From assembly GCF_021513255.1 (NCBI RefSeq), contig NZ_CP090977.1:1674001-1738000 (forward strand): DNA of 64,000 nt, written 5' to 3'. The DNA is from Planococcus sp. 107-1. Lineage in GTDB: Bacteria; Bacillota; Bacilli; Bacillales_A; Planococcaceae. The notes beneath the pieces were generated by a model. The model did no database searches. It was not told the DNA's origin and saw nothing but the letters and a program-made list of their open reading frames with translations. The translations under genes and the position numbers were made by a program. Below, piece after piece: positions 3,872 to 64,000 of this stretch. The stretch's first letter is position 1. The number at the start of each line of letters is the position of its first letter.

Positions 3872-4592
3872 TTAAAACGGGTTCGTCGCCCATTGGCTAG
3901 ACGTTGGAATGAAAATACGGGTGCAATTTCAGTTGCGCTACGATATATTCCGCGATGTCTTCCGGCTGCATGAACTTTTCTTGGCTGTTTTCCGGTTCTT
4001 CCGTCGAACCGCCGAATTCCGTAATGACCCGGCTCGGCGTCAAAGCGAAAACGCGGATATTATGTTTGCGGACTTCCTGCGACAAGGATTGGGTAAACCC
4101 GAGCACTCCGAATTTCGAAGCACTGTAAGCACTCGACCCCGGATCGCCTTTCAGTCCGGACATGGATGAAATATTGATGACGTCTCCGCCATTTTTTTCA
4201 ACAAGTTGCGGAAGGACAGTACGCGTCACATAAAACATGCCCATTAAATTCACATCGATGACTTGTTTCCAGTCTTCCGGCGAAGTTTCAAGAACCGTTC
4301 CGAATTTGCCGATGCCTGCATTATTGATCAGGATGTCTGCCGAACCAAGCGCTTCCGTTAATGCCGAAATCGCCGCTTCCACTTCTTCAAGCGAGGATAC
4401 ATCGGCCACCGCAAAAGCTGCACGGACGCCTTCTTTTTCAGCTTCTTCCACGACTTTTTGCAAATCGCTTTCGGTGCGGGCGATTAAACCGAGGTTCACG
4501 CCTTCTTTCGCAAGCGCAAGGGCAGCCGCTCGTCCGATCCCTTTACCCGCTCCTGTAATAAATGCTGTTTTCCCAGTCAACGATTGTGCCAT
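3872..4592 (-). CDS. SDR-family 3-ketoacyl-ACP reductase-like, frameshift near the 3' end
   Basis: Short-chain dehydrogenase/reductase of about 240 residues. It has the Rossmann motif TGAGKGIG near residue 14, NNAGIG and the catalytic YSASK. As read, the frame ends at 3897 with the odd tail HPYFHSNV. Shifting frame near 3917-3922 restores the family-like tail RIFIPTSSQWATNPF, ending at a stop at 3872. The length modulo 3 fits loss of two bases (CCCGCG read as CCCG) or one extra base. I judge this a sequencing error in an intact gene. SD GGTGGAG precedes ATG 4592. Confidence 0.8.
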
Positions 4593-4677
4593 TCGATCTC
4601 CACCTTTTCATTTATTCATAATTTCAGTTTGAATGAATTTCAATTAAAACGCAAAAATTCCATACGGCTTTTCTTAT

Positions 4678-4706
4678 CTGACCGATTTCCACTTTTGAGG
4701 TACAAT
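4678..4706 (+). promoter_or_regulatory. Sigma-A promoter for small membrane protein
   Basis: A CTGACC -35-like box, 17-bp spacer and TACAAT -10 box end 31 bp before the ATG at 4738. Confidence 0.55.
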
Positions 4707-4737
4707 AGAGGAAAGACAGACAGATAAGGATGGCTCT

Positions 4738-4944
4738 ATGAAAACTTCAACCGTTTTACTCTTAACGCTCGGCTTAATGCATCTTTTAACCATGCTGAAT
4801 ATCGTATTCCTTGACGGCGCATTGAACGACTTGGTCTTTTTCTTTAATACAGCACTTTTCTTTTTTGCTTTTTCCTTCTACCTTTGGAAACGCGACAAAG
4901 ACACTAAAGAAACAGCGGCAACTCCAACAAAATCCAAAAAATGA
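4738..4944 (+). CDS. Small two-span membrane protein
   Basis: 68 residues: two hydrophobic segments (about residues 4-24 and 31-49) and a Lys/Thr-rich C-terminal tail that should lie in the cytosol. AAGGA precedes the ATG. No family is recognised. Its stop codon sits inside the shared hairpin that separates it from the convergent transporter gene. Confidence 0.6.
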   Translation: MKTSTVLLLTLGLMHLLTMLNIVFLDGALNDLVFFFNTALFFFAFSFYLWKRDKDTKETAATPTKSKK

Positions 4945-4970
4945 AGCCATCGAAATGGCTTCATTTTTTA
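4941..4970. terminator. Bidirectional terminator
   Basis: ATGAAGCCAT and ATGGCTTCAT form a 10-bp stem with a 4-nt loop. T-runs follow on the plus strand and A/T-rich sequence on the minus strand, so it serves both convergent genes. Confidence 0.8.
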
Positions 4971-6630: not shown

Positions 6631-8543
6631 TTATACTGCTGCAGCCACTTTTTTCTTTAATAGCCCTGCAACGATTGCCGTAATGACAGCACCTGCAATA
6701 ATTGCAAGTGCATAGAACAACACTTTTGTTATGCCGCCGTCAACGAGACCCATAACGAACACGCCCCCGTGCGGTGCACGCAGTCCGATATCAAACAGCA
6801 TCACCAAAGCGCCCGTAGCGGCTGCACCTGCAACACACGCCGGAATGACGCGAGCCGGGTCAGCTGCTGCAAAAGGAATAACGCCTTCTGTGATAAAGCA
6901 AGCACCAAGAACGTAAGCTGTTTTCCCGGCTTCCCGTTCCGGCTTCGTGAATTTATTTTTGAAAAGCGTCGTAGCAATCGCCATGCCAAGCGGCGGCACC
7001 ATGCCGGCCGCCATGACGGTTGCCATGAAATTGAAATTCTGCGCATCCAGCATCGCGATGCCGAATGTATAAGCTGCTTTATTGACAGGGCCGCCCATAT
7101 CGATCGCCATCATACCGCCGAGGAGCAAGCCGACCAAGACCAGATTCGTTCCGCCCAGGCTTTCCAGGAATGATGAAATCGCTGTATAAACTTTTGTCAG
7201 CTGCGGGTTCACAAGCATCATGATGATGCCGGTGATGGCGATGCTGAATACCGGGAAGAACAGGACCGGTTTAAGCCCTTCGAGTGCATCAGGCAACACC
7301 GAGAAGGCTTTTTTAACGAGAAGCGTCACATAACCTGCCAGGAATCCGGCGATCAAGCCGCCCAGGAAACCGGAGCCGCCGCTTGCTTCTTCCACACCCG
7401 TGACAGTAATGGCAATCAAACCGCCGATCATCCCCGGCGCAAATCCTGGCCGCTCGGCAATGCTCATCGCGATAAATCCAGCAAGCACCGGCACCATCAA
7501 GAAGAAGGCATTGCCGCCGCCGATTGTGTTCAACATCGCCGCAAATTCATTGTAATCCGGGCTTGATGGGTCTGATGCATTGATGCCCCAGAAGAAAGAA
7601 ATCGCAATCAAGATCCCGCCGCCTACGACAAATGGCAGCATATTCGAAACGCCGTTCATCAAATGCTTGTAAAAGCCGCCTTTTGAGTCGCCGTCGTTTG
7701 CGTCTTCTTTTGTCCGGTCGTGTTTGTATTCCGGTGCATCTCCGCCAATTGCCCGGTCGAGCAGATCGTCCGTTTCGTAGATCGCTTTTCCGACTTTCGT
7801 TTGGATTACCGGTTTACCGGCAAAACGGGCCATTTCCACTTTCGTGTCTGCCGCCACTATGATGGCGTCCGCTTCTGCGATTTCTGCATCCGTCAACCGG
7901 TTTTTCACACCACTCGAGCCATTCGTTTCCACTTTCAATTGGATGCCGCGCTCTTTCGCGCGTTCATTCAGTTTCTCAGCAGCCATATACGTATGGGCAA
8001 TGCCTGTCGGACAAGCAGTGACCGCTAGAATTTTCTTGCCTGAAGCTGCAGGTGTGCTCGCTTCAGCTTCTCCGTCTGTGCCGTCCACTTCCGCTTCTTT
8101 GTCAGTGACCGCTTGGAGCACTTCTTCCTTGGTTGTTGCGGCAAGCATTCGATCACGGAACTTGCTGTCCATCAGAAATGTTGCAAGGCGAGACAGCGCT
8201 TCCAAATGATCGTCATTTGCACCTTCTGTAGCAGCGATCATGAAGAACAAATGAGCGGGCTGGCCATCGAGTGATTGATAGTCCAGTCCTTCTCGCGAGC
8301 GTCCGAATCCAATCGCCGGCGATTTCACCGCTTTCGATTTAGCATGCGGAATCGCAATACCATCGCCGATTCCAGTTGTGCTTTGTTCTTCCGCGCTAGG
8401 ATATCAGCTTGGAAAAGCTTCGAATCGGTTAATTTCCCCGCTTTGTCCAATTGGCTGATCATTTCAGCAAGCACTTCTTGTTTCGAACCAGCCTTAAGAT
8501 CCAAGATGATGGTTTGTTCAGTCAATAATTGTGTGATTCTCAT
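6631..8543 (-). CDS. fruA: PTS fructose transporter, IIABC, one frameshift
   Basis: Fructose-specific phosphotransferase permease that imports fructose as fructose-1-phosphate. Domain order is IIA (about residues 1-145, phospho-His in GIAIPHAKS), IIB (phospho-Cys in TACPTGIAHTYMAAE) and a polytopic IIC. The frame breaks at 8389-8393, within IIA, where one C of CCCGC appears missing: the minus-strand reading changes from ILAREEQSTTG to ILARKNKAQLE. Restoring one base joins both halves perfectly. The ATG at 8543 overlaps the fruK stop (ATGA), indicating translational coupling. Last gene of fruR-fruK-fruA. Confidence 0.93.
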
Positions 8544-9470
8544 ACGCTCACGTCCCCATGTTTTATTTCCTTCACGTGCACTTCCCCGATCAACGCTTCC
8601 ACATCTTCTTTTTGGCAAAGATCTGAACGAAAAGCGGTGGCGCTCCCACTAGCTACGCCGTATTTAAACGCTTCAAGCGGATTTTCCGTTTTGCAAAACG
8701 ATGCGATAAATCCAGAAACGAGTGAATCTCCCGATCCCACGGTGTTGACCACTTTACCCACTGGCGCTTTTGCTTCAAATGCCAATTTTTCATTGACGAA
8801 TAATGCACCATCGCCTCCGAGAGAAACAATCACGTTCTTAACTCCACCGTCCACTAATTTCTTGGCATATTGCAAAGCTTCCGTTTTTGTAGCAATGTCT
8901 GCATCAAAAAGTTCTCCTAACTCATGGATGTTCGGTTTGATCAGAAAAGGCGAAAACTTCACCAGCTCTTTTAAAGCCGGCCCTGATGTATCCAAAACAA
9001 AACGGATATTCCGCTCCCTGCAAAGTTCAGCGAGGCCGCTGTAATACGATGCTGGAACCGAATCCGGCAAACTGCCGGCAAGAACCAGCCAATCCCCTTC
9101 ACACATATTGTTTATTTTTTCAGTCAATTGAGCCAAGTCATCCGCATTAAGCGCAGGTCCCGGGCCATTCAATTCCGTTTCTTCTGCCGCTTTGATCTTG
9201 ACATTTATGCGGTGATTTCAGCAGTTTCAATAAAATCTGTCTCAACACCTTCACGCAGAAGGAAATCTTCTATATAATTGCCTGTAAATCCACCTATGAA
9301 CCCTAGCGCCTTATTGTGGGCTCCCAATCGCTTTAAGACGCGGAGACATTGATTCCTTTGCCTCCGGGATAATAGAATACCTCTGATGTACGGTTCAGTT
9401 TTCCGTTTTCAAAAGAGGGTAAATACGTGGTGTAGTCAACAGACGGCGTAATCGTACAAGTATAGATCAT
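8540..9470 (-). CDS. fruK: 1-phosphofructokinase, two frameshifts
   Basis: PfkB-family kinase converting fructose-1-phosphate to fructose-1,6-bisphosphate. The N-terminus MIYTCTITPSVDY, the PGGKGINVS substrate motif and the C-terminal GSGDSLVSGF (GxGD catalytic Asp) are all present. Two single-base losses interrupt it. One is near 9341-9350 (TCTCC-GCGTC, needing VSRVLKRLG). The other is near 9209-9215 (ATCACC-GCAT, needing EITRINVKI). Both are CCC runs followed by GC. With both restored the length is a multiple of three and about 310 residues, normal for FruK. Confidence 0.92.
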
Positions 9471-9483
9471 CGTTTCTCCACCT

Positions 9484-10218
9484 TTACTGTCGTCTTTTTT
9501 CCAGTTGTTCCATCATTTGCTGATCGATTTCATTCACAATCAAATCAGCGCCATCCAGATCCATGATTTTAGCGAAGCTGACTTGATTCGCTTTTGTATG
9601 GTCTGCAAGGATGTAGGTTTTTCGCGCGTAAGAACTGGCAAGCCTTTTGACAGCCGCTTCTTCCGGATCCGGTGTCGTATAGCCGTAATCGGGATGAAAA
9701 CCGTTTACGCCAAGAAAGCAAAGGTCAAAGCGGTAATTCATCAAAGATTGAATGGTCTGGGAGCCGACCATAGCACCGGTACGGGATTTCATCAATCCGC
9801 CCGTCAGATATGTCGTAATGCCGTGTTCGTTCAGGGAATCCACTAAGGTTAACCCGTTGGTGACAACGACCACATCTTTGTCTTTTAGAAAAGGAATCAT
9901 TTGAAAAGTTGTGGTTCCGGCATCAAGAAAAACACTATCGCCTTCTTGGACAAACGATGCAGCAAATTTCGCGAGCTTGATTTTTTCTTCAAGATTCCGT
10001 GTCGACTTGTCGGAGATGCTCGGTTCAGAAAGGTTGCGGCCAGGCGCAACGGCACCGCCGAATACACGCACTAAAAGCTGCCGGTTTTCAAGTTCCGTCA
10101 AATCTCGGCGGATGGTTGATTCAGAAGCTCCAGTTTCATCTACGATTTCCTGAATTTTGATGGTCTGTTTTTGGTCAAGCAAGCCCAAAATATATTCGTG
10201 GCGTTCATTCGTCAGCAT
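9484..10218 (-). CDS. fruR: DeoR-family fructose operon repressor
   Basis: A 244-residue DeoR-type repressor. The N-terminal helix-turn-helix (NERHEYILGLLDQ, ASESTIRRDLTELE) is followed by a sugar-phosphate-sensing domain with FLDAGTTTFQMIPFL. It is first in the operon with fruK and fruA, the usual arrangement for a repressor that responds to fructose phosphates. The ATG at 10218 is chosen because GAGGGTG lies just upstream; the longer start at 10278 would run through the promoter. It probably binds the hexamer array at 10276-10311. Confidence 0.9.
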   Translation of the reverse strand: MLTNERHEYILGLLDQKQTIKIQEIVDETGASESTIRRDLTELENRQLLVRVFGGAVAPGRNLSEPSISDKSTRNLEEKIKLAKFAASFVQEGDSVFLDAGTTTFQMIPFLKDKDVVVVTNGLTLVDSLNEHGITTYLTGGLMKSRTGAMVGSQTIQSLMNYRFDLCFLGVNGFHPDYGYTTPDPEEAAVKRLASSYARKTYILADHTKANQVSFAKIMDLDGADLIVNEIDQQMMEQLEKRRQ

Positions 10219-10249
10219 TTTTGCACCCTCTTTATTTAAGGTTAAGTAG

Positions 10250-10278
10250 ATAATACTTGAAAACCCTTCCAAAATCAA
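10250..10278 (-). promoter_or_regulatory. fru operon promoter
   Basis: Minus-strand TTGATT (-35, 10278-10273), 17-bp spacer and TATTAT (-10, 10255-10250). It lies 32 bp before the fruR ATG. The -35 box overlaps the first operator hexamer. Confidence 0.65.
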
Positions 10279-10311
10279 TCATAATCATTCATAAGCAATC
10301 AAAAACATTCA
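10276..10311. promoter_or_regulatory. FruR operator candidate: four hexamers at 10-bp period
   Basis: CAATCA, CATTCA, CAATCA and CATTCA begin at 10276, 10286, 10296 and 10306, exactly 10 bp apart, so all face one side of the helix. The array overlaps and extends upstream of the fru -35 box. Direct repeats are typical of DeoR-family operators; the assignment to FruR is inferred. Confidence 0.6.
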
Positions 10312-10327
10312 AACAGCTATTTTACCT

Positions 10328-10356
10328 TTCAAAATCGCTCATGAATGATTTGATAT
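10328..10356 (+). promoter_or_regulatory. Possible ptsHI promoter
   Basis: TTCAAA, 17-bp spacer, TGATAT. The boxes are weak but lie 40 bp before the ptsH ATG in a gene-free divergent region. Confidence 0.4.
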
Positions 10357-10395
10357 CAAGCAAACTCAATCACATTTTCTTAGGAGGAATTTTAC

Positions 10396-12436: not shown

Positions 12437-12597
12437 TTATTCTTTTTCATGATCTTCTTTTCCGGTATTTGCCGTTTTCTTGAACTGCTCCAGCTGTTTT
12501 TCTTCATCTTGTTCCGGCTCGAAATCCGGAAGATCCGCATTCGGCATTTCTGTAAATTCTTCTTGTTCTTTATCTTCTTGCTTTTTTTATCTTCCAT
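12437..12597 (-). CDS. Small acidic protein, frameshift in an A-run
   Basis: An ATG at 12597 with AAAGGAG upstream starts MEDKK. The frame then fails at a seven-A run (12582-12588 on the plus strand as T). With eight A residues it reads on as a 53-residue Glu/Gln/Asp-rich protein containing EEFTEMPNADLPDFEPEQ and ending at the TAA at 12437. As given, the frame instead yields an implausible Lys/Arg-rich chain. Function unknown; the composition is that of a disordered acidic protein. Confidence 0.55.
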
Positions 12598-18400: not shown

Positions 18401-19127
18401 TTAAGAATGTCTTATGGGAGTGGCAGCTTCTCTGGCTGGAATGGAGATGCCTGTAGAAGCCAAGGTTTTTAAGAGAAGCTCATGCATCATTTTATAGCCT
18501 TCTTCATTCGGATGGATTGAGTCCAGCCAGATGGAAGGATTTTTCCCCATCGGTTCCGTACGTGAGATAATGATTCCTTCTTCACCGATTGCTGAATTCC
18601 ACATCCGGAATAGCAAATTGGTGAAACCGAAATATTGCACTTCTTTTTTCATGGAATTATACAGGTTATTTTGGACAATCAACAGTTTTTCATTGAGGCT
18701 CCGCAGATGCTGATAGATTTCCAACAAGTTTTTACGGTAAATTTTCTTCAAATTCGAAAACTGTTTGACCAGCCCTTTTGCGCCGCTCCCTTTAAAGCCA
18801 CGGAGCAGATCATTGCCGCCAATATTCAAAAGTACCATATCTGCAGATGCTAAGGTCTCGTCCCAGTTGCCGGTTCGAAGGCGATCGACTAACCTCGCTG
18901 CTCGTTAAGCCATTGATCCCTAAATTTGTTACTGTGCTGGTGTGGAAAGTTTCTTTCAGGTATTTTGCAATACCCCCTCTTGTTCCATAACCATAAGCTA
19001 CCGAATCGCCTAATATGACAATATGTTTTATTTCAATATTTCCGTTAAAATTTTCAGTGGATTTTGGCCCTTTAATAAGGGACTTTGAGATTTTCGCATT
19101 AGCCAAATTGCAGCACATCCCTTTCAA
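18401..19127 (-). CDS. SGNH/GDSL hydrolase, one frameshift
   Basis: Lipase/esterase of the SGNH superfamily, about 240 residues. The nucleophile block is ILGDSVAYGYG, block III is NIGGNDLL and the C-terminal dyad is in DSIHPNEEGY. The N-terminal half ends in frame one after NGLTSSEV. The second half (LVDRLRTGNWDETLASADMVLLNIGG) follows in another frame, joined near 18888-18896. The length needs two more bases or one fewer. The start is uncertain: TTG 19127 or a codon shortly after. No clear signal peptide. Confidence 0.75.
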
Positions 19128-19376
19128 AGTAGATAATATTATTTTACCATAAAAAGGGCGAAAATCCGACTGAAACGCTTTTGCACAGCGGTTTTAGCAT
19201 ATTAAATTTATGTGTTTTCGCCCGCCCTTAAATTCGGAATTAATCTTAAACTCCTTCGGGAAAGCCCTTTATATAAGACGTTCTTTAAGCCCGCTTCAAT
19301 CTCAATCTCTTGCATTTAAATACAGCTTAGCTTATCTTCAACAATAGGATAACCTTTACAGACAGGAGAAATAGTT

Positions 19377-21335: not shown

Positions 21336-23004
21336 ATGCAGGTCAAAAAATTAATGCCCCTGCTCGTAATGTTTCTGTTTCTCCTGCCTGTCACGGTTTT
21401 AGCAGTGGATTTTGAAATAAACGAAGCAACCATCGATGCGCAACTGCTGGAAAATGGCGATGTTGCAGTTGAAGAAGAGTTCACTTATGAATTCGATGGG
21501 GATTTTGAAGGAATTACAAGGGAACTCAAACCAAAATCCGGCACTGAAATCACCGGATTTACAGCACATGATAAAATGAAAAAATTAAAAGTCGACAAAG
21601 AAGAAAGTATTTATAAAATTTATCGTAATGGCGACGATGAAACGATTACAATTTCACTCAATTATGTAATTGAAGGAGCTATTGAAAAATTTGAAGATGG
21701 CGCTGAATTTTATTGGCCGTTTTTCGATGATCGAAACGAAAGTGATTACGAACAAATGACGATTGCCATCCATCCTCCCTCTTCAACTGATGAAGTTTTA
21801 TTTCTCGGATACGATGAAGCGTTTGAAAAAGGGATCGCCAGCGACGAAGGCTCAGTGGTCTTTAAATTAGGAAAAGTGCCTGAAGGAAGCAACGGAGATA
21901 TCCGGGTTATCTATGATGGGGAATTATTTCCCGGCATCTCTCAATCAGGTGGAACTGTGAAAGATTTGCTGCTTGAAGACCGTAAACAGCAGGAAGAGGA
22001 AGCCGCGGCTTTCGCAGCTAACCAAAACACGGCCTCAGTAATCGGGAAATCCGCGTTGCCAACACTCGGATTAACGCTTGCATTGCTGCTTCTTTTTGCA
22101 TATTGGAATGCCAGAAAGAACAAAGAGGAAATTGTAGACAAACAAAGGGTTTTATGTGCCTGATGAAAAACTCAGCCTTCCTGCCACCGTCCATTTCACC
22201 CATTCCCCTTATTTAACACCGGATGCAATAGCTGCCGCTTTAATGGAGATGGTGCGGAAAAAGAATGTGAGACAACTTTCAGAGGATCAATTTGAATTAA
22301 CTGGTAAAAAAGCCCAATGGCCGCATGAACAGACTTTGATCGATTTATTATTCCATAAAATCGGTGATGGCCAGACTTTTAACTTATCCGAAGTGGAGGC
22401 TTATTCAAAGAAAGAATTGAATCACTCCGCTTATAATGATGCGATAGCGAAATGGAATCGGGAAGTGGCGGATGAAGTGAAAGCCCATCATTTTAAAGAA
22501 AAAGTTTCTGGTATCAGGCTCCTTTCTGGCGCAATCAGTGCCGCCGCCGCAGGGCTTGCAATCTATACAGGGATCTATGAAATTTACCCAGTTATGGCGC
22601 TTTTTATTTTAGTTTCTTTAATCGCAGTAAGCTTTGCCCTCTTCTATTCACCGTTGACAGTAGAAGGACATACCGTTAAAGCCCAATGGAAAAAAATGCG
22701 CAAGGCAATGGAAAACTTGCCTGCCAGTGAATGGAAAAAATTAACTGCAGATGATAAACTCCGCGCTTATGCCTATCTTCTCGCAGTAGACGGCAAACAG
22801 CTTGACAAAAAATCACGAAGCTTTTCCGTAGCTGGACAATATGCAGAAGAAACGGATTCTGCCTTGTACTTCAATCCAATTCTATTGTCAGGTGTGTTCG
22901 TGGCAGCAAGTTCCAATACTTCCGCTTCTGCAAGCGGCGGCAGTTCGAGTGTTTCATCAGGCGGAGGAGTTGGCGGCGGTGGCGGCGGATCCGGCGCATT
23001 TTAA
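21336..23004 (+). CDS. DUF2207 membrane protein, one frameshift
   Basis: About 555 residues. An N-terminal signal peptide (VMFLFLLPVTVLA) precedes an extracytosolic DUF2207 beta domain. A membrane span follows near residue 245, then a cytosolic region with two more hydrophobic segments and a Gly-rich C-terminus ending GGSGAF, which is typical of DUF2207 proteins. The frame breaks at 22148-22155 (AGGGTTTTATG). One base fewer joins RVLCA to the continuation YVPDEKLSLPATVHF. Function unknown; AGAGGTG serves the ATG at 21336. Confidence 0.8.
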
Positions 23005-23978: not shown

Positions 23979-25153
23979 TTATTTTTCTTTGATTTCGCCG
24001 TAATAAGCCGATTGGTAAATCGTGAAAATATCATCGCGTTCAAGAGGCATTGGGCTTCTTGCAAGAATCCGCTGCTGTTTGATGGCGTCATCCGCTAAGG
24101 AATCGAGGGCCTCTTGTGTGATGCCAAACCCTTGCAGGTTCAATGGAATGTTGACATCCGCCACTAATCGCTTCAGCTCTTCCACGCATTTGTAGGAAGC
24201 TTCCTGCTGCGACAATTGATTTGAGCTGACTCCCATCGCCTCCAGTATATCCTTCATGCGCTTTTCGCAGCTCGAACGGATATAACCCATAACATACGGA
24301 AGCAAGACCGCATTCGATTCGCCGTGTGAAATATGGAATTGGCCGCCGAGCGGATAAGCGAGTGCATGAACTCCGGCAACACCCGCATTAAAGAACGCGA
24401 GTCCTGCTAAATAGCTGCCATAGCTCATGTCCGAACGCGCTTGTTTATGATCCCCTTCATTTACCGCTGTGCGAATAGAGCCGCTGATCAAGCGGATTGC
24501 CTGCAGCGCCAAGGAGTCGGTCACAGGATTGGCATTTACGGAAACATAGGATTCTATCGCATGAGTCAATGCATCGATGCCAGTCGCAGCTGTTACTTTT
24601 GGCGGCAATGAAACGGTTAATTCGGGATCCACGATCGCGACATCCGCCAACAAGCAATTATGAGTTACCACATCTTTGGTTGTTTCAAGCGATAAGACAG
24701 CGATATCTGTCACTTCAGATCCGGTTCCGGAAGTTGTAGGAATCAGGATTTTCGGGATGCCTTTATTTGAAATTTCACGCGTTCCAGTCAGATTCAAGTA
24801 ATCTGCAGCTTTCCCTTCGTGAGTAGCTAATACTGCCGCTAATTTTGCAAGGTCCAAGGCGCTGCCGCCCCAAGCCCGATTACCAAATCGAATTGATGCT
24901 CTTTTGTATAAGCAACCAATTTTTCGCCAACCTCAAGCGGCGGTTCTGGAACCACTTCAGTATAAATGCTCGTTTTCCAGCCTTGTTCTTTTAAAGGTGC
25001 TTCAATCTTATCCGCAATTCCAAGATCCACTAAAAAAGGATCTGTGACGATTAAAATATTGCTGGCTTTCATTTTTTTCACTTCATCTGTTAAATGGTCG
25101 AGCGCTCCCCATCCAGTATAACTGAGTGGTGTAAAAGTAATTTTATGCGACAT
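23979..25153 (-). CDS. Iron-containing alcohol dehydrogenase, one frameshift
   Basis: Group III Fe-dependent alcohol dehydrogenase of about 391 residues. It has IPTTSGTGSEVTD, GIDALTHAIESYVS and GVHALAYPLGGQFHISHGESNAVLLP, which supply the Asp and His metal ligands. The frame breaks at 24868-24871: the sequence has four C where five give the expected VIGLGGGSALDLAKL. The ATG at 25153 is preceded by AAGGAGGCG. Last gene of the permease-aldehyde dehydrogenase-alcohol dehydrogenase operon. The substrate is not evident. Confidence 0.88.
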
Positions 25154-25174
25154 CGTTTCCACGCCTCCTTCGGT

Positions 25175-26604
25175 TTATTGCAGTGGGTTGTGGTTCCACA
25201 CAACCAATTTCATTTCCGTCATTTCTTCAATTGCGTATTTTAGCCCTTCTTTGCTGTTGCCGCTTTCTTTTACGCCGCCATAAGGCATTTGGTCAACCCG
25301 GAATGTCGGAATGTCATTGATGATAACGCCTCCCACTTCCAGGCTTCGTGAAGCGCTAAATGCAGTGCTGATATCGTTCGTGAATATTCCCGCCTGCAAG
25401 CCGAAATCGGAATCGTTGATTTCCCGTATCCCATCTTCAACCGAGTCAATCGGATTGACGATGACAAGCGGCGCAAATACTTCCATACAGGAAACTTTTG
25501 AATTTCGTCGGACATTCGCCAAAATCGTCGGCCGGAAAATGCCGTTTTCTATTGTCCCTCCGGTGATTAACGCTGCCCCTTCCGAAACCGCTTCCTGCAC
25601 CCAAGATTCCGCACGCGTTTGCTCTTTTTGTGAAATCATGGCAGAAAGGTCCGTCATGCCATCCAGTGGGTCACCGATCACAATGCGCTCCGTTGCCGCT
25701 TTAAATTGAACAAGAAATTCTTCCATCTGTTCTTTTACAATGTAAATGCGCTGAAGGGAAATACAGACTTGCCCCTGATTTGAGAAGGCCCCTGTAACCG
25801 CCTTTTCGACTACCGCTTCCATATTTACCCCTTTATCGATGATCACACCCGCATTTGAACCGAGTTCAAGTGATACTTTTTTCAATCCTGCTTTGTCGCG
25901 GATGCCTTTTCCGACTTCAGGGCTGCCGGTGAACGTGATCATCCGGACTGACTCGCTTTCGACTAAAGCGTCGCCAACCGTTTTGCCGCTTCCAGTCACC
26001 ACGTTAAAAGCCCCTTTTGGCAAATTCGTCTGATCGAGAAGCTCTGCCAAGAAAAGAGCAGAAAGCGGTGTTTGGGAAGCCGGTTTTAAGATGATTGTAT
26101 TTCCGCTGCGATAGCTGGACCGACTTTATGGGCCACTAAATTTTGTGGGAAATTGAATGGCGTAATCGCTGCCACCACACCGATCGGCTCTCGCATCGTA
26201 TAGCCAATCCGATTTGCTCCGCCTTTTGCGGCATCCAGCGGGATCATTTCACCCGTCAATCTTTTTGCTTCTTCTGCTGCAAATTTATAGGTTTCAATCG
26301 TCCGGTCAATTTCGGCCAAGGCGTATTTCAACGGCTTGGCCGATTCCAACGCAATGATTTCCGCTGCTTTCTGTTTATGTTCGATAAAGAGTGAAGTCAG
26401 CTGCTCTAAAATCTGTGCACGTTCATAAGCAGTCAAACGAGACATCGCTTTTTTTGCAGCTTCTGCTGAATCGATTGCAAGTTGTACATCTGCCAAACTC
26501 GCTTTTGGTATTTCAGCAATTTTTTCATAAGAATAAGGCGACAGCAAATCCGAGTATTCTTCAGCCTCTGCCCATTCTCCGTTTCTATATAACTTTTTTC
26601 TCAC
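25175..26604 (-). CDS. NAD(P)-dependent aldehyde dehydrogenase, one frameshift
   Basis: Aldehyde dehydrogenase superfamily, about 476 residues. TPFNFPQNLVAHKVGPA, the general-base region LELGSNAGVI and the catalytic Cys in GQVCISLQRIY are all present. Near 26102-26106 one base is missing (GCGGAAAT for GCGGGAAAT); restoring it joins AIAAG to NTIILKPASQTP. It starts with GTG at 26604, overlapping the end of the permease gene by 20 nt, with GGAGG 9 nt upstream. It sits between the permease and the alcohol dehydrogenase, suggesting oxidation of an imported or locally made aldehyde. Confidence 0.9.
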
Positions 26605-31427: not shown

Positions 31428-31467
31428 AAAAAAACCATTGCAGGCGATCATTCGCCTGCAATGGTTT
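31428..31467 (-). terminator. Terminator, perfect 16-bp stem
   Basis: AAACCATTGCAGGCGA at 31432-31447 pairs exactly with 31452-31467; T-run on the minus strand. It overlaps the end of the EVE-HNH gene. Confidence 0.88.
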
Positions 31468-32417
31468 CTTCCCTAGAATCTGAATTGGTTGTTTTTCTTT
31501 TATCGACAAAAATCTCTCTTTTATGCCATCTGAAGAATTCGCCGTTGTCAGGGTAAACCGAGATTTTCTTCCCTTTTTTCAATCCGTATTCGGCGTAGCG
31601 CTCCTCTGGTATCTGTTGTGCGATGTGCAGCTTTCCGCCAGCTGTGAAACTGATTAATCCGGAAGTAAACATGGCTTCGTGATTATTGCAGAGCAACAAG
31701 CCGTTATAAGGATTGATTTTTTCCGCATCCGTGCTATCTTTCCACGGTTTTGCATAGCCAGCTTTTAACGCGGCATCGATGTCCATGCCGCATAGCGGAC
31801 ATTCTTTATGCCATAAAGGCAAAAGCGATTTTCTGAATTGCAGCTGCCCGCTGGATTTTCGTTTTCATTTCCATGATGGTTTCTGCGATTAGCGTGATTA
31901 ACGGATTGTGTTCCGTCACTCGGACCACTTCCATTGCGAGTTCCAATTGCTCCGCTTCGGGTACATACACATTCAAGCGGCTAATGCCTTCCAGCAATTC
32001 GATGGCGAGCTCTTCGTTGCAAGGATAAAGGTATCCGGGATTGCCTGTACCGTCTTCTTTAAAAGCCGCATATTTCACTGGCAGAAGACTCGAAATATCG
32101 TCCAAACATTCTTTGATCGATAACGGATTCTCCAACTCCCGATATTCAACCTGCACCAAATAGCCAACCGCTGATTCTTTTTCAGGACTCTCTTCTTCAA
32201 AAGGCTTCCGTTCTTTTTTGAAGGCTCCTTTTGCTACGCTGATGGCCACGATCGCCCCTTTGACGTAATGGAAAATCCGGTCTCCTTTTTTCACTTCCAT
32301 CAACCGCTGATAGGAATGCGGAACCATTCCTGCTTTGTCCGTTTCCGGAGCCCAGATCAAACCGGCATTCTTTTCTTCATGATACGTTTCACCCTGCATG
32401 ACGATATATGCGTTCAA
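31448..32417 (-). CDS. EVE-like/HNH endonuclease fusion, one frameshift
   Basis: About 322 residues as one protein. The N-terminal domain (MNAYIVMQGETYHEEKN...IWAP) has the look of an EVE/PUA-type modified-base reader. The C-terminal domain is an HNH nuclease with CPLCG, a central AGYAKPWKDSTDAEK...NGLLLCNNHEAMF segment, and zinc and catalytic residues intact. The halves lie in different frames joined at an A-run near 31830-31834, where one extra A separates AIQK from SLLPLWHKECPLCG. EVE-HNH fusions are known modification-dependent (type IV) restriction enzymes. Whether the split is real is unresolved, but it is probably an error. Confidence 0.75.
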
Positions 32418-32675: not shown

Positions 32676-33507
32676 TCACTTTATGCCTGAACTGATGACG
32701 CTTCGGACAAAATAACGGTTTGCAGCGACAAATAGGATGAATGCCGGCAAAGTAGCCACAACCGTTGCCGCCATCATCCTCCCTGGATTCACGAAATTAG
32801 AGCCTTGGACGAGGTTTGCGACTCCGACTGTGACCGTTTTCATTTCATCTGCACTGGTCACAACAGATGGCCAAAGAAAATCATTGTAGATGGTCAGAAA
32901 AGTCAAGACGGACAATGTGGCAACGACTGGGCGGATTGCTGGGAAAATAACAAACCGCAAAACTTGCCATAACGAAGCCCCATCGATGATCGCCGCTTTT
33001 TCCAAGTCTTTCGGGAATCCCCTCAAAAAAGCTGTAAATTAGGAAGACGCCCATCGTGTTCGCGGAATAGACCAAAATCAACGGAGCATACGTATCAATC
33101 AAATTAAATTGCCGGAATAAGTAGAACATCGGAAACAAAGTGACGATCGTTGGAACTGTAAGAGCTGCCACAACCACAAGGAAAAAGAACCTCTTGCCGG
33201 GCAGATTCAAACGGGCAATCGAATAGGCCGCAAGAACATCTACGAAAACCACCAGCAAGGTCCCAATTGCTGTAACGATAGCGGTATTCAAAAGCCAGCG
33301 GAGCACCGGAACGTCTGCAGTGATGCCGAAGATGCTTTTGTAATTCTCTAAAGTCCAAGTTTTCGGCAGTAATGAAGAAGTCGACATCGCCTCTCCCAAC
33401 GCTTTGAATGACGTCAACACCATAAAAATCAGAGGCAGCAGAAACAACAATGCAAGCAATGTCGCCAATAAAAGAATGAGGAAATTTTTGCTTTTGGATT
33501 TTTTCAT
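32676..33507 (-). CDS. Sugar ABC transporter permease (MalG-like), one frameshift
   Basis: Carbohydrate ABC importer inner-membrane subunit of about 276 residues and six spans. The EAA loop that docks the ATPase reads EGIPKDLEKAAIIDGAS, but the frame breaks inside it at 33013-33015, where three C stand for two. Removing one base joins the halves. Third gene of binding protein - MalF-like - MalG-like; no ATPase gene lies here, so a shared MsmX-type ATPase is likely. Confidence 0.88.
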
Positions 33508-34478: not shown

Positions 34479-35739
34479 TTATTGAGGAGCAGTTTCAGCA
34501 ACTTGTTTTGATTGTTCCGTTGCTTTTTCAAGCTCACCCATCAATTTCTCTTTCGTCATGCCTTCTTCTGAAATAATTTGAGGATAGACGTTTTCCACCA
34601 AATAACGGACTTGTTCACGGTATTGATAAAGTTTAGGTGCTCCGACAAACGAATCGAATTGCTGAATGTTTTGAGCGGATAACGGGTATTTCTCAACATC
34701 ACCTTCAACCAGCTCCATCGTCGGAATGTGGGTCGGCGCCTGGCCGCTTTCTGCCCAGTTCGCCAAATTCTCAGGTTGATACATGTAGTTCAGGAATTCC
34801 GCAATACCTGCCATTTTCGCTTCATCGTTTACTGAAGACGGCAAAGCGAGCGTATGGCCAGCTCCGTAGACGCCTTTTTGCTCCCCAAGCTGCGGGATGG
34901 AAGCAATGCCTAAATCATCTCCATAAGCTTCTTTTACCGCTGCGTAATACCAAGGGCCAGTTAGGGAAGTAGCAGTCTGAACTGCGCTGTTCCCTTCTTC
35001 CACTTGTTTCATAAATGCTTGGAACTCACCGTCAAGGCCCAGCCCCGGCGGAGAGATTTTGTCTTTGAAGACCATATCGTGGTAAATCATAAGGGCATCC
35101 GCCAATTCTTCCTGCGCCAAATTCATATGGTCATCTTCCACCAAATCGATGTTATTTTGAGCGGCAATCGTCATGATGAACCATTCAGCAAGTCCAGCAC
35201 TTGGAATCCCTGTTGCAAAAAGGTTGGGGTCGTCTCCATTAAGCTTCTTCGATAATGCCATTAAGTCTTCGTATGTGGCCGGCGGCTCAGAAGCAAGCTT
35301 CTTATTGTAGAACATCGTTAACGGATGGATATCAAGCGGTACTGCAAAAACACCATCATCAAATGTCACATACTCCTGAGCTGTCGGGTGGAAATCATCC
35401 ATACTGATTTCAGCTGTTTCCATGGCAGAGCTGATATCTTGGATCATGCCATCCTGTTTAAATGTTTCAAGCATATCCGTATGGATAACAACTAAATCAT
35501 AATTTCCAGTCTTGAACTTTGTATAATGATCTTTTTCCTGGGATTCTTCGACGACATACTGATCTTGTGACTCATTAAAACCATCCGTTATTTTTTCATG
35601 TAATCCCCATCACCGCCAGTAAATCCGTTAATAAAGGTAATTTTTGTTTTGCCATCCGCGGTTTCACTGTCTGCTCCCCGCCGCATGCAGCCAAAATCAG
35701 TGCACTCATTAACATGACGGCTAATAATATCTTCTTCAT
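34479..35739 (-). CDS. Sugar-binding lipoprotein of ABC importer, two frameshifts
   Basis: Extracellular solute-binding protein (family 1), about 420 residues. A lipoprotein signal MKKILLAVMLMSALILAACGG shows the lipobox LAAC. Two breaks lie near the N-terminus. At 35676-35679 four C stand for five (CGGGADSETADG restored). At 35591-35596 six T stand for seven (YMKKITDGFNES restored). Downstream the protein is intact to the stop. Start at ATG 35739, 7 nt after GGAG; the ATG at 35745 would be too close. Confidence 0.88.
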
Positions 35740-35832
35740 TTTCATTCTCCTTTCTTTCATCGAAAAGTGTGCTGAAATTTTGTGAGCTTCCGTACCCAAG
35801 CCCTCCTTTTTAATTGCCATATTAAGGATTTG

Positions 35833-37237: not shown

Positions 37238-38391
37238 TTATTTTCTTTGAAGTTCTTCCACACGTTTCATAATAATCGGAATGAGCGGATCATCCGCGTC
37301 CAATTCTGCCACTTCTCGAAGTGTTTTTTCAAATCCCTGCGCTGCTATCATTTCCTGCAATTGTTTGGCTTCAGGATCTTCGTCATTTACGTAAAGCAAG
37401 ACAGCCGCAATGACCGTTGCTAAATGGACAGGCTCTTTTCCTGTCAGTTGCCAGTAAAGACTTGCCGGGCGAATCAAGCGGTCGTTTTTGCCTAATTTAC
37501 GCAACGGGCCTCTTCCGACACGCGTCACATGGTCCGAGATATTCGGATTCTGGAAGCGGCCAATGATTTTTTGGATGTACGCTTCGTGTTCTGCCCGGTC
37601 AAAGCCATGCTCTTGAATGATCACTTCACCGGTTTCACTTAAAGCTCCTTCAAGAAGCTCTTCAATCTCTTCGTCCTGCATCGCATCGAAAATCGTCTGG
37701 AACCCTTTATAACGGCCAAAATACGCGGAACCGTATGGCCTGTATTGACAGTGAACAATTTCCGTTCAATGAACGGGCTTAAATCGTCCACATACGTAAT
37801 GCCTTCTACAGCAGGAACTTCACCTTTTAATACCGGTTTTTCAACCACCCATTCGTAGTAGGGTTCAACTGCGACAGCTAACACATCATCGCTTGTCTGA
37901 TCCGGGACGATCCGGTCGACCGCTGCATTCGGAAAACCAATCAGCCGGTCCGCTGTTTCTTTTTCCTGTTCGGTTAAATGCGTATAAACATGTTCTTTCA
38001 ACAAAGAACTGGCATTAATCATGTTTTCGCACGCAATGATATTCAGCGGCTGGGGGTTTTTCTCAAATCTCACTCTCAGCCCTTCTGCAATAAGACTTGA
38101 AATCATCGGCAATACTTTCGGGCCGACAGCCGCAGTCACTAAGTCAGACTGGACGATGGCATCTGCGCCTTCTGCTGGATGGCTCAGTGTATTGATGCCG
38201 TGAACCTTTTCAACGTGAATAGTTTGTTGTTCTGAACCCATTAATGTCACGTCATAGCTATTTCGCTCATTCAAGGCATCAACAACCGTCCCATTGACAT
38301 CCAAAAAAACCGTTTCGTAATTTGATTCATATAACAGGGCGCCGATAAACCCTCTTCCGATATTGCCGGCGCCAAAGTGAACAGCTTTCAT
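37238..38391 (-). CDS. mtlD: Mannitol-1-phosphate 5-dehydrogenase, one frameshift
   Basis: Oxidises mannitol-1-phosphate to fructose-6-phosphate with NAD+. N-terminal HFGAGNIGRGFIG is the Rossmann motif, and KLFTVNTGHTV matches the conserved catalytic region. At 37725-37728 one base is missing (GTTCC-GCGTA), and restoring CCCGCG gives VPAYFGRYKGFQTIFDAMQDE. It then reads to the end, about 384 residues, the normal length. It follows mtlF directly with no gap. Confidence 0.93.
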
Positions 38392-38828
38392 TCAGCTCAC
38401 CTCGCTGAATAGTTCCAAAATTTCTTCTTCAGTCGTCGCATTCAAAATTTTATCGATATTTTCTTCTTCTGAACAAACAATCGCGATGTTCGAAAGGATT
38501 TCCAGATGTTCATTTCCTTTTCCGGCAATGCCGATCAAGATTTTAGCAATATTGCCCCCGCCAAAATCGATGCCGTCCGGAACAGTCACGACCGAAATTC
38601 CGGTTTCAAGCACATTTTTTTCGCATCTTCTGTGCCGTGTGGAATTGCGAGTGAATTCCCCATGAATGTAGAAGTCAGCTCTTCCCGCTCCAACATTTTT
38701 TCGATATAAGCTTCATCGACATATCCGCCATCGACCAGAATGCTTCCGGTATAGCGGATAGCTTCTTCTTTTCCGGATAACGAAACATTTAATTTGATAT
38801 TTTCTTTGCTCAATACTTCTTTTGCCAT
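38392..38828 (-). CDS. mtlF: Mannitol PTS IIA, one frameshift
   Basis: Mannitol-specific enzyme IIA, about 145 residues, which passes phosphate from HPr to MtlA. The phospho-histidine is in SLAIPHGTEDAKK. The frame breaks right after it in a run of seven A (eight needed), restoring AKKNVLETGISVVTVPDG. The ATG at 38828 is favoured because the GTG at 38840 overlaps the SD. Middle gene of mtlA-mtlF-mtlD. Confidence 0.92.
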
Positions 38829-38861: not shown

Positions 38862-40341
38862 TCACTTGTCAGTTTTCAAACGTTGGGCTAGTTTATCGTA
38901 TTCCGGGCTGTTCATAAAATTCTCTACTGAAATATGTTCAGCTCCAGGCAGTTTCGCTTTCGCACGATCCGTTAAATCTTTGTGCGTCACCACAATATCT
39001 GCATCAGCCGGCAGCTGATTGATCGCTGTATTGGAAACTGGAATATCAATATTTTCTTTCTTGAACTTGTTGCGGAGTAATGAAGCTCCCATAGCGCTCG
39101 ATCCCATACCCGCATCACAAGCAAATACCACTTTGTGGACATCTTCCGGTGCAAGCATCGTTGAATCGACCGGCTGTGTATTATCCGTTTCCACTCGTTC
39201 CCCTGCTGCCGCACCAACAGCTGCTTGTGCAGGTTTCGGAGTCAAATAACCAGTTGCATCACTTTTCTTGCCTTTCATTTCTTCCATTTTGCCAGCTGCT
39301 GCAGCTAAATCTTCATCTTCTACCTTGCTCGTTTTCAAGATAACGGAAGCAATCGCGAAAGAAACAGCGGCAGCGACAACGACGCCTGAGATAACGCCGA
39401 GGTAATTTCCTTGAGGCGTCAATGCCAACAAGGCGAAGATACTGCCTGGTGACGGTGTCGCCGGAAGGCCCGCATCAAATAGTGTAAACATGAATACACC
39501 GCTCATGCCCCCGCCAATAGCCGCTAACAGCAGCATCGGTTTCATTAAGATGTACGGGAAGTAAATTTCATGGATACCACCGAGAAATTGGATGATTGCT
39601 GCACCGGGAGCCGAAGCTTTTGATACCCCTTTGCCGAAAATACTGAAAGCCAAGAGAATTCCAAGACCTGGCCCCGGGTTTGTTTCAAGCAAGAATAGAA
39701 TTGATTTTCCTGCTTCTGCCGCTTGATCGACGCCAAGCGGGCTCAAGATCCCGTGGTTGATCGCATTGTTTAGGAAGAGAACTTTTGCCGGCTCGATAAT
39801 AATGCTTGCGAGCGGCAACAAGCCCATGTCTACGATCACTTCAACCCCATCAGCCAGGATATTAGTCAAAGAACTAACGACCGGTCCGATGATGTAAACG
39901 GAAAAGCCGGCGAGAATTGCCCCTAAGATACCGGCAGAAAAGTTATTGTAAAGCATTTCGAAACCGGTTCTGATTTTTGCCAAAAACAAGTTATCAATCA
40001 CTTTCATTAAATAACCCCGCAAGCGGCCCCATAATCATGGCCCCTAAGAACATCGGAACATCAGCGCCAACAATTACTCCTAAAGTGGCCGTTGCACCAA
40101 CTACGCCCCCTCTGAAATCATAGACAAGCCGTCCACCGGTAAAACCGATCAATAATGGAAGCAAGTATTTGATCATCGGATCGACAAGGCTGCCAAGCGT
40201 TTCATTCGGAATCCAGCCATCCGGTATGAACAGGGCTGTGATAATCCCCCAAGCAATGAATGCTCCGATATTCGGCATAATCATGCCGCTTAAATAGCTC
40301 CCAAAACGCTGAACTTTTGCACGAACATTTGTCTCCGCCAT
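38862..40341 (-). CDS. mtlA: Mannitol PTS IICB, one frameshift
   Basis: Mannitol permease with IIC membrane domain ([19 protein letters not shown] start) and C-terminal IIB domain ([17 protein letters not shown], phospho-Cys), about 492 residues. At 40015-40018 an extra base (CCCC for CCC before GC) changes [14 protein letters not shown] into a premature end. Removing it restores the standard reading. The IIA function is on the separate mtlF. A cre-like site precedes it; no mtlR activator is in the window. Confidence 0.93.
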
Positions 40342-52294: not shown

Positions 52295-53130
52295 TTAAAC
52301 TGGCATTTTTCCTTCTTTGTCCCTCTTAACACGCGCTGGCTCTAAAATGAATCTTTCTAACACATGAAGAACCCCTTCCTCATTGTTCGTAAAGGTAGTG
52401 TAATCAGCTTTTTCTTTCACTTCCTTTACGGCATTTCCCATTGCTATTCCTAGACCAGCCGCATCAATGAGTTCGAGGTCATTGTAGTTGTCGCCAATGC
52501 CTATTATCTCTGAAGGATCTATATCCAGTTGTTTTGCTAAGTGTAGTAGGGCACTGCCTTTGTTGGCCTCTGGGTGGGTGACTTCCAGGTAGTTTTTCTT
52601 TGATTTTGCGATGTGGGCATACTTGCTGTATAAAGTCTGCAATTCTTGCTGCAGCTGATCGAGGACGTCGGGGTCTTCGATAAACAGTAATTTTGTAATC
52701 CCTTTAGACGCTAATTTCTTAAGATCCGGTTCAATCGTATAAGGAACTTTAACTGCTTGAGAATAAGCGATTAGCTTTTCATTTTCTTCGGCACTAAAGA
52801 GAATGTCATCTTGATATACTTGTAGATGTATTTTTTTCTCAAGAGCAATTTCGATTAGCTTTGTGTAACCTCAGGAGGAACAGTGCGCTCATACATTACT
52901 TCTCTTCCGTTTACATCCTTGATTAGTGCACCCTGATACGTAATGAGCGGTACATTTATATTCAATTGCCGGGCAATGAGACTCGCTGAAGCAAACATGC
53001 GCCCCGTAGCAATTGTCACGACTATTCCCTCCGCAACCACTTTTTGAATGGCAGCCACTGTATCTTGTGGAATCACTAAGTCATCTGTGAGCAGTGTTCC
53101 ATCAAGATCGATCGCAATCAATTTATACAT
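52295..53130 (-). CDS. Cof-type HAD phosphatase, one frameshift
   Basis: About 278 residues, HAD-IIB/Cof hydrolase acting on sugar phosphates or similar. Motif I is AIDLDGTLL, and the later motif IGIGDNYNDLELI supplies Asp pairs. The frame breaks near 52857-52862 after PPEVTQ. One extra A in CAAAGC (giving CAAAAGC) restores QKLIEIALEKKIHLQVYQDD, which reads through to the stop at 52295. It lies between hxlR and hxlB on the same strand. Confidence 0.88.
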
Positions 53131-53816: not shown

Positions 53817-53817
53817 G

Positions 53818-54459: not shown

Positions 54460-54498
54460 ATATCTGTCTCCCCGTTTTTTGTATTTCGATGCAAACTT

Positions 54499-54527: not shown

Positions 54528-54545
54528 GTACGCACTTTAACAACA

Positions 54546-54565
54546 CATACTGACAAAAAGTATAC
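54546..54565 (-). promoter_or_regulatory. HxlR box candidate upstream of hxlA
   Basis: Minus-strand GTATACTTTTTGTCAGTATG lies just upstream of the hxlA -35 box, where an activator should bind. It shares 12 contiguous bases with the site before hxlR. Confidence 0.55.
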
Positions 54566-56118: not shown

Positions 56119-56135
56119 TTGATTCACCCCTAAAA

Positions 56136-62240: not shown

Positions 62241-62281
62241 CTGCCTGTCAAAAAAGTTGCCATTATTAAGGAGGATTTTAG

Positions 62282-62905
62282 TTGTTTAAATATGTAATTT
62301 TCGATGTGGATGGAACGATTTTGGATACGGAACGGGCCATTTTAAAATCACTGGACCAAGTTTTGCGAGAAGAAGTCCATGCGTATCCGATAGAAGAATT
62401 ACGTTTTGCGCTGGGCATCCCCGGACAAGAAACCTTAAGAAAACTGAAAGTGAACGATATGGAGCGTTCCCATTCAAAATGGTCGCAAGCCGTATTGGAA
62501 TTTTCGCATGAAGTAGAGGTCTTTGAAGGCTTGCGAGAAGTGATACAGTCATTGCCGGTAATCCCGGTTCGAACAGGAATTGTCACGTCAAAAACAAAGC
62601 AGCAATTGGCAGATGAATTCGAACCGTTTGGGTTAACTTCTAATTTTGAACAGATCGTCTGCGCAGATGACACACAAAATCATAAGCCGCATCCGGATCC
62701 GTTATTGCTTTGTTTAGCGAAATTGAACGCGCCTCCAAACGAAGCTCTATACATTGGCGATTCGGTCTATGACATGCAATGCGCTAAGGAGGCAGGCGTG
62801 AAATTCGCGCTTGCGCTATGGGGTGCGAAGCGGCGAAAAGGATTTGAATCCGCTGACTACGTATTGTCGGAACCAAAAGATATGTTGCAATTACTTAACG
62901 AGTGA
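62282..62905 (+). CDS. HAD-superfamily hydrolase, phosphoglycolate-phosphatase-like
   Basis: 207 residues. Motif I FDVDGTILDTE, motif II VTSKTK, Lys in NHKPHPDP and motif IV IGDSVYDMQCAKEAG are complete. TTG start at 62282 after AAGGAGG. Close spacing to the isochorismatase gene suggests one transcript. Confidence 0.88.
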   Translation: MFKYVIFDVDGTILDTERAILKSLDQVLREEVHAYPIEELRFALGIPGQETLRKLKVNDMERSHSKWSQAVLEFSHEVEVFEGLREVIQSLPVIPVRTGIVTSKTKQQLADEFEPFGLTSNFEQIVCADDTQNHKPHPDPLLLCLAKLNAPPNEALYIGDSVYDMQCAKEAGVKFALALWGAKRRKGFESADYVLSEPKDMLQLLNE

Positions 62906-62930
62906 TTATCCTAAAAGGAGGAATGGAACG

Positions 62931-63134
62931 ATGTCGAGAATCGAAAATTCCAAATGGAAACTTAGCACGGCCGGCTTTACAGCGTTTATTTTAGGCTCAA
63001 TCTTCTACTTGATAACAGGGCCTAATCTGCCAGGAATACTCGGTTTTTTTATCTCTGCCATCATTCTGTTCCTTCTAAATGCCGGTTATGTTTTTTACAT
63101 GAAAATAAAAGCGAAGAAAGCCAAAGAGGCGTAA
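62931..63134 (+). CDS. Small two-span membrane protein
   Basis: 67 residues from ATG 62931 with AAGGAGG. Spans around residues 13-30 and 34-56, Lys-rich C-terminus. The longer frame from 62811 is inside the HAD gene. Third gene of the plus-strand unit. Confidence 0.65.
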   Translation: MSRIENSKWKLSTAGFTAFILGSIFYLITGPNLPGILGFFISAIILFLLNAGYVFYMKIKAKKAKEA

Positions 63135-63178
63135 GTCCAATCGCCTAATACTTTTCTTAGCTTTTTTGGAAGCTTGCT

Positions 63179-64000
63179 TTACCATTCGCGCCATTCTTCG
63201 GTAACGTCCTCTTCCGTCTCCAACCCGGCTTCCTGTGCTTTTTCCATAAGGAACTCCTGCAGCTCTTCCCCGCTCCATCGTCTCTATGAAGTAATCGTAT
63301 TGATCATTTAAGGCATTTAAACGGAGCACTGTTTTTTCTACTTGTTTTAAGATTTGCTTTTCAGAAGGATCGTGAAGACGTAAAAGCTTCTTTTGATAAT
63401 CTTCGAGCACGTCTGCAACGGCCGCCAGATTTTCTTCCGTAAATAAGTCATCTTCGTCTTCCTCCATCCGTATTCTCCATGCATCCGTAGGCAAAAGCTG
63501 GGCTGCCGAAGCAGCTTCTCCTGCCTCATTCCGCTTAGGTTTCTCGATAAACGTCGGTGGATATCCATCTTTTAGCCGATGGGAATAATGCTTTTTATTT
63601 GTAAAATACGCGTAGTCCAAATTGATGCATGGTGAAACATCGCCGTCGAGGACCGTCGTATCCCAAAATTGCATGCTTTTCAAGTGAGGTAGTTGCTTAA
63701 TGAACCCGATGGATGGTATGGTTCCGCAGTTATTGAGGTCCAATTGTTCGAGCGACTGGACTTTTCCAATCGGCGATAAGTTTTGAATGTTTTTTACACC
63801 TTCCATTGAAAGTGATACTAAATTGCCCGAAAGTTCCTGGATCGCTTCGATGTCTTTTAAGCTTCTCATTCCATATAACTCCAAGTACTGCAACTGGGTT
63901 AACCCCTGAATGCCGTCTAAAGATGTAATATTGGAAGTAATGAGCTCTAATTTCTCAAGTGCTTCCAGGCTTCTAAATTCCTCTAGATTTTTCCCTTTCG
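63179..64000 (-). CDS. Leucine-rich-repeat protein, 5' end beyond window, one frameshift
   Basis: Open to the window edge; at least 270 residues. LRR-like units include LEKLELITSNITSLDGIQGL, LQYLELYGMRSLKDIEAI and LEQLDLNNCGTIPSIGFI. A charged helical C-terminus follows. At 63268-63271 an extra C (CCCC before GC) shifts the frame. Removing it gives MEREELQEFLMEKAQEAG and a stop at 63179 instead of the Arg-rich tail. Paralogue-like to 56571-57446. Confidence 0.75.

What the first reader, a model, noticed from the sequence alone, without database searches (positions are those of the whole stretch)
3872..64000. About 20 frame-breaking indels in 18 conserved genes
Frames are split in an SDR (3917-3922), fruA, fruK (twice), a small acidic protein, an SGNH hydrolase, DUF2207, alcohol dehydrogenase, aldehyde dehydrogenase, EVE-HNH, ABC permease, binding protein (twice), mtlD, mtlF, mtlA, a Cof phosphatase, two small membrane proteins and an LRR protein. 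In every case shifting by one or two bases restores a continuous family-like sequence, and the total length modulo 3 agrees. Such density in housekeeping sugar operons argues for base-calling error, not gene loss. Any gene call in this assembly is affected.
Basis: partly seen in the sequence, partly recalled or inferred. Interest (0 to 1): 0.7.

Follow-up and report, generated by a model that had tools for sequence, protein, structure and literature searches.

The report
Frame breaks are assembly sequencing errors
The sugar genes that look broken in this Planococcus assembly are almost certainly intact in the cell: the assembly miscounts bases, most often at one five-letter word (CCCGC) that the strain probably methylates.

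Summary
The small acidic protein rests on one short frame; the two small membrane proteins stay unresolved.

Elsewhere the same assembly splits genes a bacterium cannot do without (ribosomal protein L3, EF-Tu, IF-2, NusA, DnaE), while rpoB and ileS are whole. Copies of 23S rRNA disagree with each other, and two 16S copies carry private indels.

CCCGC/GCGGG lies at 23 of 45 clean breaks (background 2.2%), and at 10 of 19 in a region fetched after the motif was noted. CCCGC is hit over 20 times more often per site than CCCGA or CCCGG. The other 22 breaks lack it in both aligned sequences; some sit in A/T runs.

The assembly also holds a BpuJI-like restriction gene, found in none of 29 other genus genomes searched, between two cytosine-5 methyltransferase genes. 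Likely cause: native nanopore reads miscalled at methylated CCCGC, the FauI/SmuI site. Platform and methylation are inferred, not shown.

The parts
3875..4592 (-). SDR-family gene, frame change near 3918
6634..8543 (-). fruA (fructose PTS), frame change near 8379-8451
8543..9470 (-). fruK (1-phosphofructokinase), frame changes near 9342 and 9211
   Evidence: CCCGC in the relative at 9211
12540..12580 (-). possible break in a small acidic protein, beside an A run; weak
   Evidence: one 74-aa frame of G008
18419..19139 (-). SGNH/GDSL hydrolase, frame change 18849-18892
21336..23001 (+). DUF2207 membrane protein, frame change 22133-22147 in a variable stretch
   Evidence: dropped from the clean motif count
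23982..25156 (-). iron-containing alcohol dehydrogenase, frame change near 24860
25175..26604 (-). aldehyde dehydrogenase, frame change near 26104
31451..32417 (-). HNH endonuclease-like gene, frame change near 31848
32679..33507 (-). ABC transporter permease, frame change 33004-33032, by a T run on the coding strand
34482..35742 (-). ABC solute-binding protein, two frame changes (35591-35597 beside an A run; another upstream, where GCGGGG occurs)
37241..38391 (-). mtlD, frame change 37648-37726
38395..38828 (-). mtlF (PTS IIA), frame change 38604-38622, beside an A run
38865..40341 (-). mtlA (mannitol PTS IIC), frame change 40015-40043
52295..53130 (-). Cof-type phosphatase, split between 52642 and 52855
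   Evidence: Hydrolase_3 positions 1-84 and 164-255 lie in two separate frames
63182..64000 (-). LRR protein running past the window end, frame change near 63268

Best explanation
The frame breaks are consensus errors of this assembly; the genes are intact in the cell (my probability 0.97). Most likely cause: native DNA was read on a nanopore instrument and the consensus was not corrected with accurate reads. The strain carries a type II restriction-modification locus with two cytosine-5 methyltransferases, which probably methylate CCCGC/GCGGG. Around that methylated word the base-caller reads the C run one base short or long, or drops two bases, and a small share of sites keeps the error in the consensus. 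A/T homopolymer miscounts add a second, smaller class. Shown: the breaks, broken indispensable genes, discordant rRNA copies, motif enrichment, and the locus. Inferred: the sequencing platform, the methylation, and its link to this locus.
For: Broken genes include L3, EF-Tu, IF-2 and NusA and DnaE. Overall 46 of 295 G008 ORFs are frame-broken in G000, 52 events, 2.06 per 10 kb of coding DNA. CCCGC/GCGGG is in one or both aligned sequences at 23 of 45 clean breaks against 2.2% background; 10 of 19 in the region fetched after the motif was noted; 6 of 9 in the two regions chosen for indispensable genes. Per 1000 sites: CCCGC 67, CCCGA 3, CCCGG 2.6, CCCAC 0, TTTTT 2.8; CCCGC against CCCGA plus CCCGG p = 9e-10. 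23S rRNA: in six G000 copies, 13 indels, 5 of them one shared insertion; of the other 8, 6 are at the motif and vary from copy to copy; 41 indels in 13 copies of two relatives, none at the motif. 16S 3' part: 2 indels private to single G000 copies, both at CCCGC. BpuJI_N gene (E 1e-82) between two C5 methyltransferase genes; BpuJI_N in 1 of 30 genus genomes, G000. FauI and SmuI recognise CCCGC (PMC3949710, passage). About 70% of consensus errors of then-current nanopore base-callers lay in Dcm motifs in a K. pneumoniae test genome (PMC6591954, passages).
Against: No reads or modification data were available. 22 of 45 clean breaks lack CCCGC in both aligned sequences and 15 of 45 lack even CCGC/GCGG. 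In the window only 7 of 16 clean breaks have CCCGC. Other words are raised too: CCGCG 39, ACGCG 26, TCCGC 22, CCCGT 20, CCCCC 23 per 1000 sites, the last from 2 events. Most CCCGC sites are not broken. BpuJI itself recognises CCCGT (recalled), not CCCGC. C5 methyltransferases as a family are not special to G000: 15 of 30 genus genomes have one, G008 included. Of other methyltransferase families only PF01555 was searched. A same-genus nanopore genome made from PCR-amplified DNA also reports 419 pseudogenes (PMC12060695, passages), so error without methylation occurs.
Confidence: 0.78

Rival explanations
1. Sequencing error from an intrinsic base-caller weakness at C runs in GC-rich sequence, unrelated to methylation.
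For: CCGCG, ACGCG and TCCGC are also raised; several breaks sit in A/T runs; an amplified-DNA Planococcus nanopore genome reports 419 pseudogenes (PMC12060695, passages).
Against: C runs of the same length before GA, GG or AC are hardly touched: CCCGA 3.1, CCCGG 2.6, CCCAC 0 per 1000 sites against 67 for CCCGC. A fitting restriction-modification locus is present.
Confidence: 0.17
2. Real pseudogenes: the strain is losing sugar-use genes.
For: Many breaks fall in dispensable sugar operons. The break rate is higher in the window region (3.42 changes per 10 kb against 1.78 and 2.45 in the two other regions). The DUF2207 and LRR genes are not obviously indispensable.
Against: L3, EF-Tu, IF-2, NusA and DnaE are broken too, and single rRNA copies carry private indels at the same word. 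A few individual breaks could still be real.
Confidence: 0.02
3. Programmed frameshifting or another recoding system restores the proteins.
For: Shifting frame restores family-like sequence.
Against: rRNA, which is not translated, shows the same indels; the changes go both ways (26 one-base deletions, 7 two-base deletions, 12 one-base insertions); homologous genes in the relatives compared are mostly unbroken.
Confidence: 0.01

Closest known systems
Nanopore consensus errors at methylated motifs (Dcm CCWGG in Klebsiella; PMC6591954, passages)
   Same: Errors concentrated in one short word; indels that shift frames; A/T homopolymer errors as a second class.
   Different: Word is CCCGC, in a Planococcus; platform of this assembly is unknown; methylation not measured.
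Nanopore-only assemblies with excess false pseudogenes (Homopolish paper PMC8011154, passages)
   Same: Frameshifting indels that intact homologues in relatives expose.
   Different: That paper describes mainly homopolymer errors; here one GC-rich word dominates.
FauI/SmuI restriction-modification specificity CCCGC (PMC3949710 and PMC2749054, passages)
   Same: The five-base word equals the main error word.
   Different: Relationship of this locus to FauI or SmuI by sequence was not tested.
R.BpuJI (PDB 5hlt, 2vla)
   Same: N-terminal DNA-recognition domain matches: PF11564 E 1.4e-82; BpuJI chain E 2.5e-16 over residues 9-242.
   Different: BpuJI site is CCCGT (recalled); the C-terminal part here matches NOV_C.

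Membership tests
Sequencing or assembly artefact | Breaks genes a living cell needs | tested here: met
   L3, EF-Tu, IF-2, NusA, DnaE broken. Their indispensability is recalled knowledge. rpoB and ileS intact.
Sequencing or assembly artefact | Hits non-coding RNA and differs between identical copies | tested here: met
   23S and 16S copies
Sequencing or assembly artefact | Independent accurate reads lack the indels | not testable with these tools
   No reads available
Methylation-linked nanopore error | Errors concentrate at one specific word beyond base composition | tested here: met
   CCCGC 23 of 45 against 2.2%; neighbouring words near baseline
Methylation-linked nanopore error | Cognate methyltransferase encoded | tested here: inconclusive
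   Two C5 methyltransferases around a BpuJI_N gene; their target is not known
Methylation-linked nanopore error | Nanopore platform and methylated CCCGC | not testable with these tools
   No run records or signal data
FauI/BpuJI-like type II restriction-modification system for an asymmetric site | Restriction gene with a BpuJI-type recognition domain | tested here: met
   PF11564; R.BpuJI chains
FauI/BpuJI-like type II restriction-modification system for an asymmetric site | Two methyltransferases, one for each strand of the site | tested here: inconclusive
   Two PF00145 genes flank it; strand roles untested
FauI/BpuJI-like type II restriction-modification system for an asymmetric site | Cuts CCCGC | not tested
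   Needs an assay

The most novel reading that the evidence does not exclude
The errors are an imprint of the strain's methylome: assembly indels alone reveal that it methylates CCCGC, and the BpuJI_N-type enzyme at G000:3144829-3146232 with its two C5 methyltransferases has FauI-type CCCGC specificity, differing from BpuJI's recalled CCCGT in the last base. Unpolished genomes in databases could then be mined for methylation specificities without raw signal.
Probability: 0.5. Interest if true: 0.4.

Novelty: not a real feature. Interest (0 to 1): 0.22.

Why it matters
Gene-loss or pseudogene claims from this genome would be wrong for sugar operons and for indispensable genes alike; my extrapolation from 2.06 breaks per 10 kb of coding DNA is roughly 600 breaks genome-wide. 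If the CCCGC link holds, indel patterns in unpolished assemblies can predict a strain's methylation word and point to its restriction-modification genes.

Tried and rejected
k-mer depletion of CCCGC in G000 against relatives was uninformative: base-composition differences swamp a loss of a few per cent of sites.

G019 as a control gave almost nothing: its contig starts elsewhere, so its stretches hardly overlap those of G000 (0 to 1 ORF compared).

Long homopolymers as the main cause: rejected as sole cause; runs of 6 or more at 5 of 45 clean breaks against 2.5% background. CCGC (AciI/BspACI-type) as the word: CCCGC fits better; no paper held BspACI with methyltransferase. PMC5437673 (passages) was irrelevant: its CCCGT hits are primer tails.

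A second alcohol dehydrogenase break (25138) was not counted: it lies upstream of the likely start. Seven of 52 events (DUF2207 among them) were dropped from the motif count for having more than one gap.

23S copy L194 (18 indels, 2 at the motif) was kept out of the six-copy count and is reported apart.

G000 as the query side is not clean either: 14 of 321 ORFs change frame against G008; from the contexts about half are the same sites seen from the broken side.

Full report
What the window is. The window is G000:C1:1674001-1738000 of a 3,513,248-base single contig. The named relatives listed first for its PTS enzyme I-like gene are Planococcus and Planomicrobium. The assembly scores 94.28 completeness and 4.11 contamination; 23 same-genus genomes in the same table score 99-100 and 0-2.

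The observation. I compared the window with the syntenic stretch of G008, with eight named loci around fruAK and with G045, G006 and G003 loci for the ABC operon, and ran family searches. The small acidic protein has weak support and two small membrane proteins stay open. Against chance: with G000 as target, 50 of 267 ORF comparisons change frame; among pairs without G000, 7 of 366.

Is it only here? No. Over four regions (window with flanks, the ribosomal/rpoB region, the infB region, and 160 kb at 1260001-1420000), 46 of 295 G008 ORFs are broken in G000, 52 events in 84,146 aa, or 2.06 per 10 kb. Broken genes include ribosomal protein L3, EF-Tu, NusA, IF-2, PNPase, LeuC, LeuD, acetolactate synthase, DnaE, pyruvate kinase, a GAPDH, MutS2, EzrA and others. 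Over 30 genus genomes the IF-2 profile is split in G000, G004 and G016; in G016 by a contig end. rpoB and ileS are intact. A strain without L3, EF-Tu, IF-2 or DnaE could not live (general knowledge), so the indels are not in the cell.

rRNA as a test without codons. In six complete 23S copies of G000 there are 13 indels against the consensus; five are one shared insertion. Of the other eight, six are at CCCGC/GCGGG, at three places, and they differ between copies; two lie in other C runs. Thirteen copies of G014 and G009 have 41 indels, none at the motif. In the 1,087-nt 3' part of 16S, two indels occur each in a single G000 copy only, both at CCCGC, in sequence that I recall as near-universal in bacteria; a third deletion (column 1000) is shared with G014 and is ordinary variation.

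The motif. After seeing the first alignments I noted CCCGC/GCGGG, with CCGC/GCGG as the looser form, and then fetched a new region. Of 52 events 45 are clean single gaps: 26 one-base deletions, 7 two-base deletions, 12 one-base insertions. CCCGC is in one or both aligned sequences at 23 of 45 (background 2.2%), 13 of 26 in the first regions and 10 of 19 in the new one. Per 1000 sites the rate is 67 for CCCGC, 3.1 for CCCGA, 2.6 for CCCGG, 0 for CCCAC; CCGCG (39), ACGCG (26), CCCCC (23, two events), TCCGC (22) and CCCGT (20) are also raised. Runs of six or more A or T account for 5 of 45. In the window itself 7 of 16 clean breaks have CCCGC and 10 of 16 have CCGC/GCGG; the permease break and one binding-protein break sit beside T and A runs.

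A candidate cause. G000 carries, at 3136001-3156000 (L173), two cytosine-5 methyltransferase genes (L173:7785-8804 and 10253-11311, minus strand) on either side of a 467-aa gene (8829-10232) with a BpuJI_N recognition domain (E 1.4e-82) and a NOV_C match; the recognition part also matches the solved R.BpuJI chains (E 2.5e-16). BpuJI_N occurs in 1 of 30 genus genomes searched, this one. Such type IIS enzymes see an asymmetric site (PMC9240713, passages), for which two methyltransferases are expected (recalled). BpuJI's site is CCCGT (recalled). CCCGC is the site of FauI and SmuI (PMC3949710, passage; M.FauI in PMC2749054, passage). So the main error word and the locus fit one picture, but no call shows that these enzymes methylate CCCGC. 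C5 methyltransferases in general occur in 15 of 30 genus genomes.

Why nanopore. The literature seen here describes this behaviour: about 70% of consensus errors in Dcm motifs for then-current base-callers in a K. pneumoniae test genome (PMC6591954, passages), frame-shifting systematic indels partly due to species-specific modification (PMC8011154, passages), and a newer study with only 6.5% of errors linked to methylation (PMC12392509, passages). A same-genus MinION genome from PCR-amplified DNA reports 419 pseudogenes (PMC12060695, passages), a reminder that error without methylation occurs. The platform of G000 is not known to me.

Verdict. Artefact: 0.97. Methylated CCCGC read on nanopore as the main cause: about 0.78. 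The kind of error is known; the species and word may be unreported, but I make no claim of absence from print.

Noticed in passing
L173:3947-7311 (G000:C1:3139947-3143311), + strand: Two genes beside the restriction-modification locus: an AAA-type ATPase-like protein and a PD-(D/E)XK_7/DUF2357 nuclease-like protein; layout recalls McrBC-type systems (recalled).
   Followed up: no
L194 (G000:C1:984999-987953): One 23S rRNA copy has 18 indels, mostly insertions and mostly away from CCCGC, and more substitutions (60 against 44-47) than the six other complete G000 copies; either a diverged copy or a badly read one.
   Followed up: partly
G004:C13:1966606-1968308: The IF-2 gene is also split over two frames in a second genus genome, so a similar error may exist there.
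   Followed up: no
window 54862-56127, - strand: Y-family DNA polymerase (IMS domains) with an open frame, next to a SIS-domain protein and an OMPdecase/HUMPS-family protein (53262-54546).
   Followed up: no
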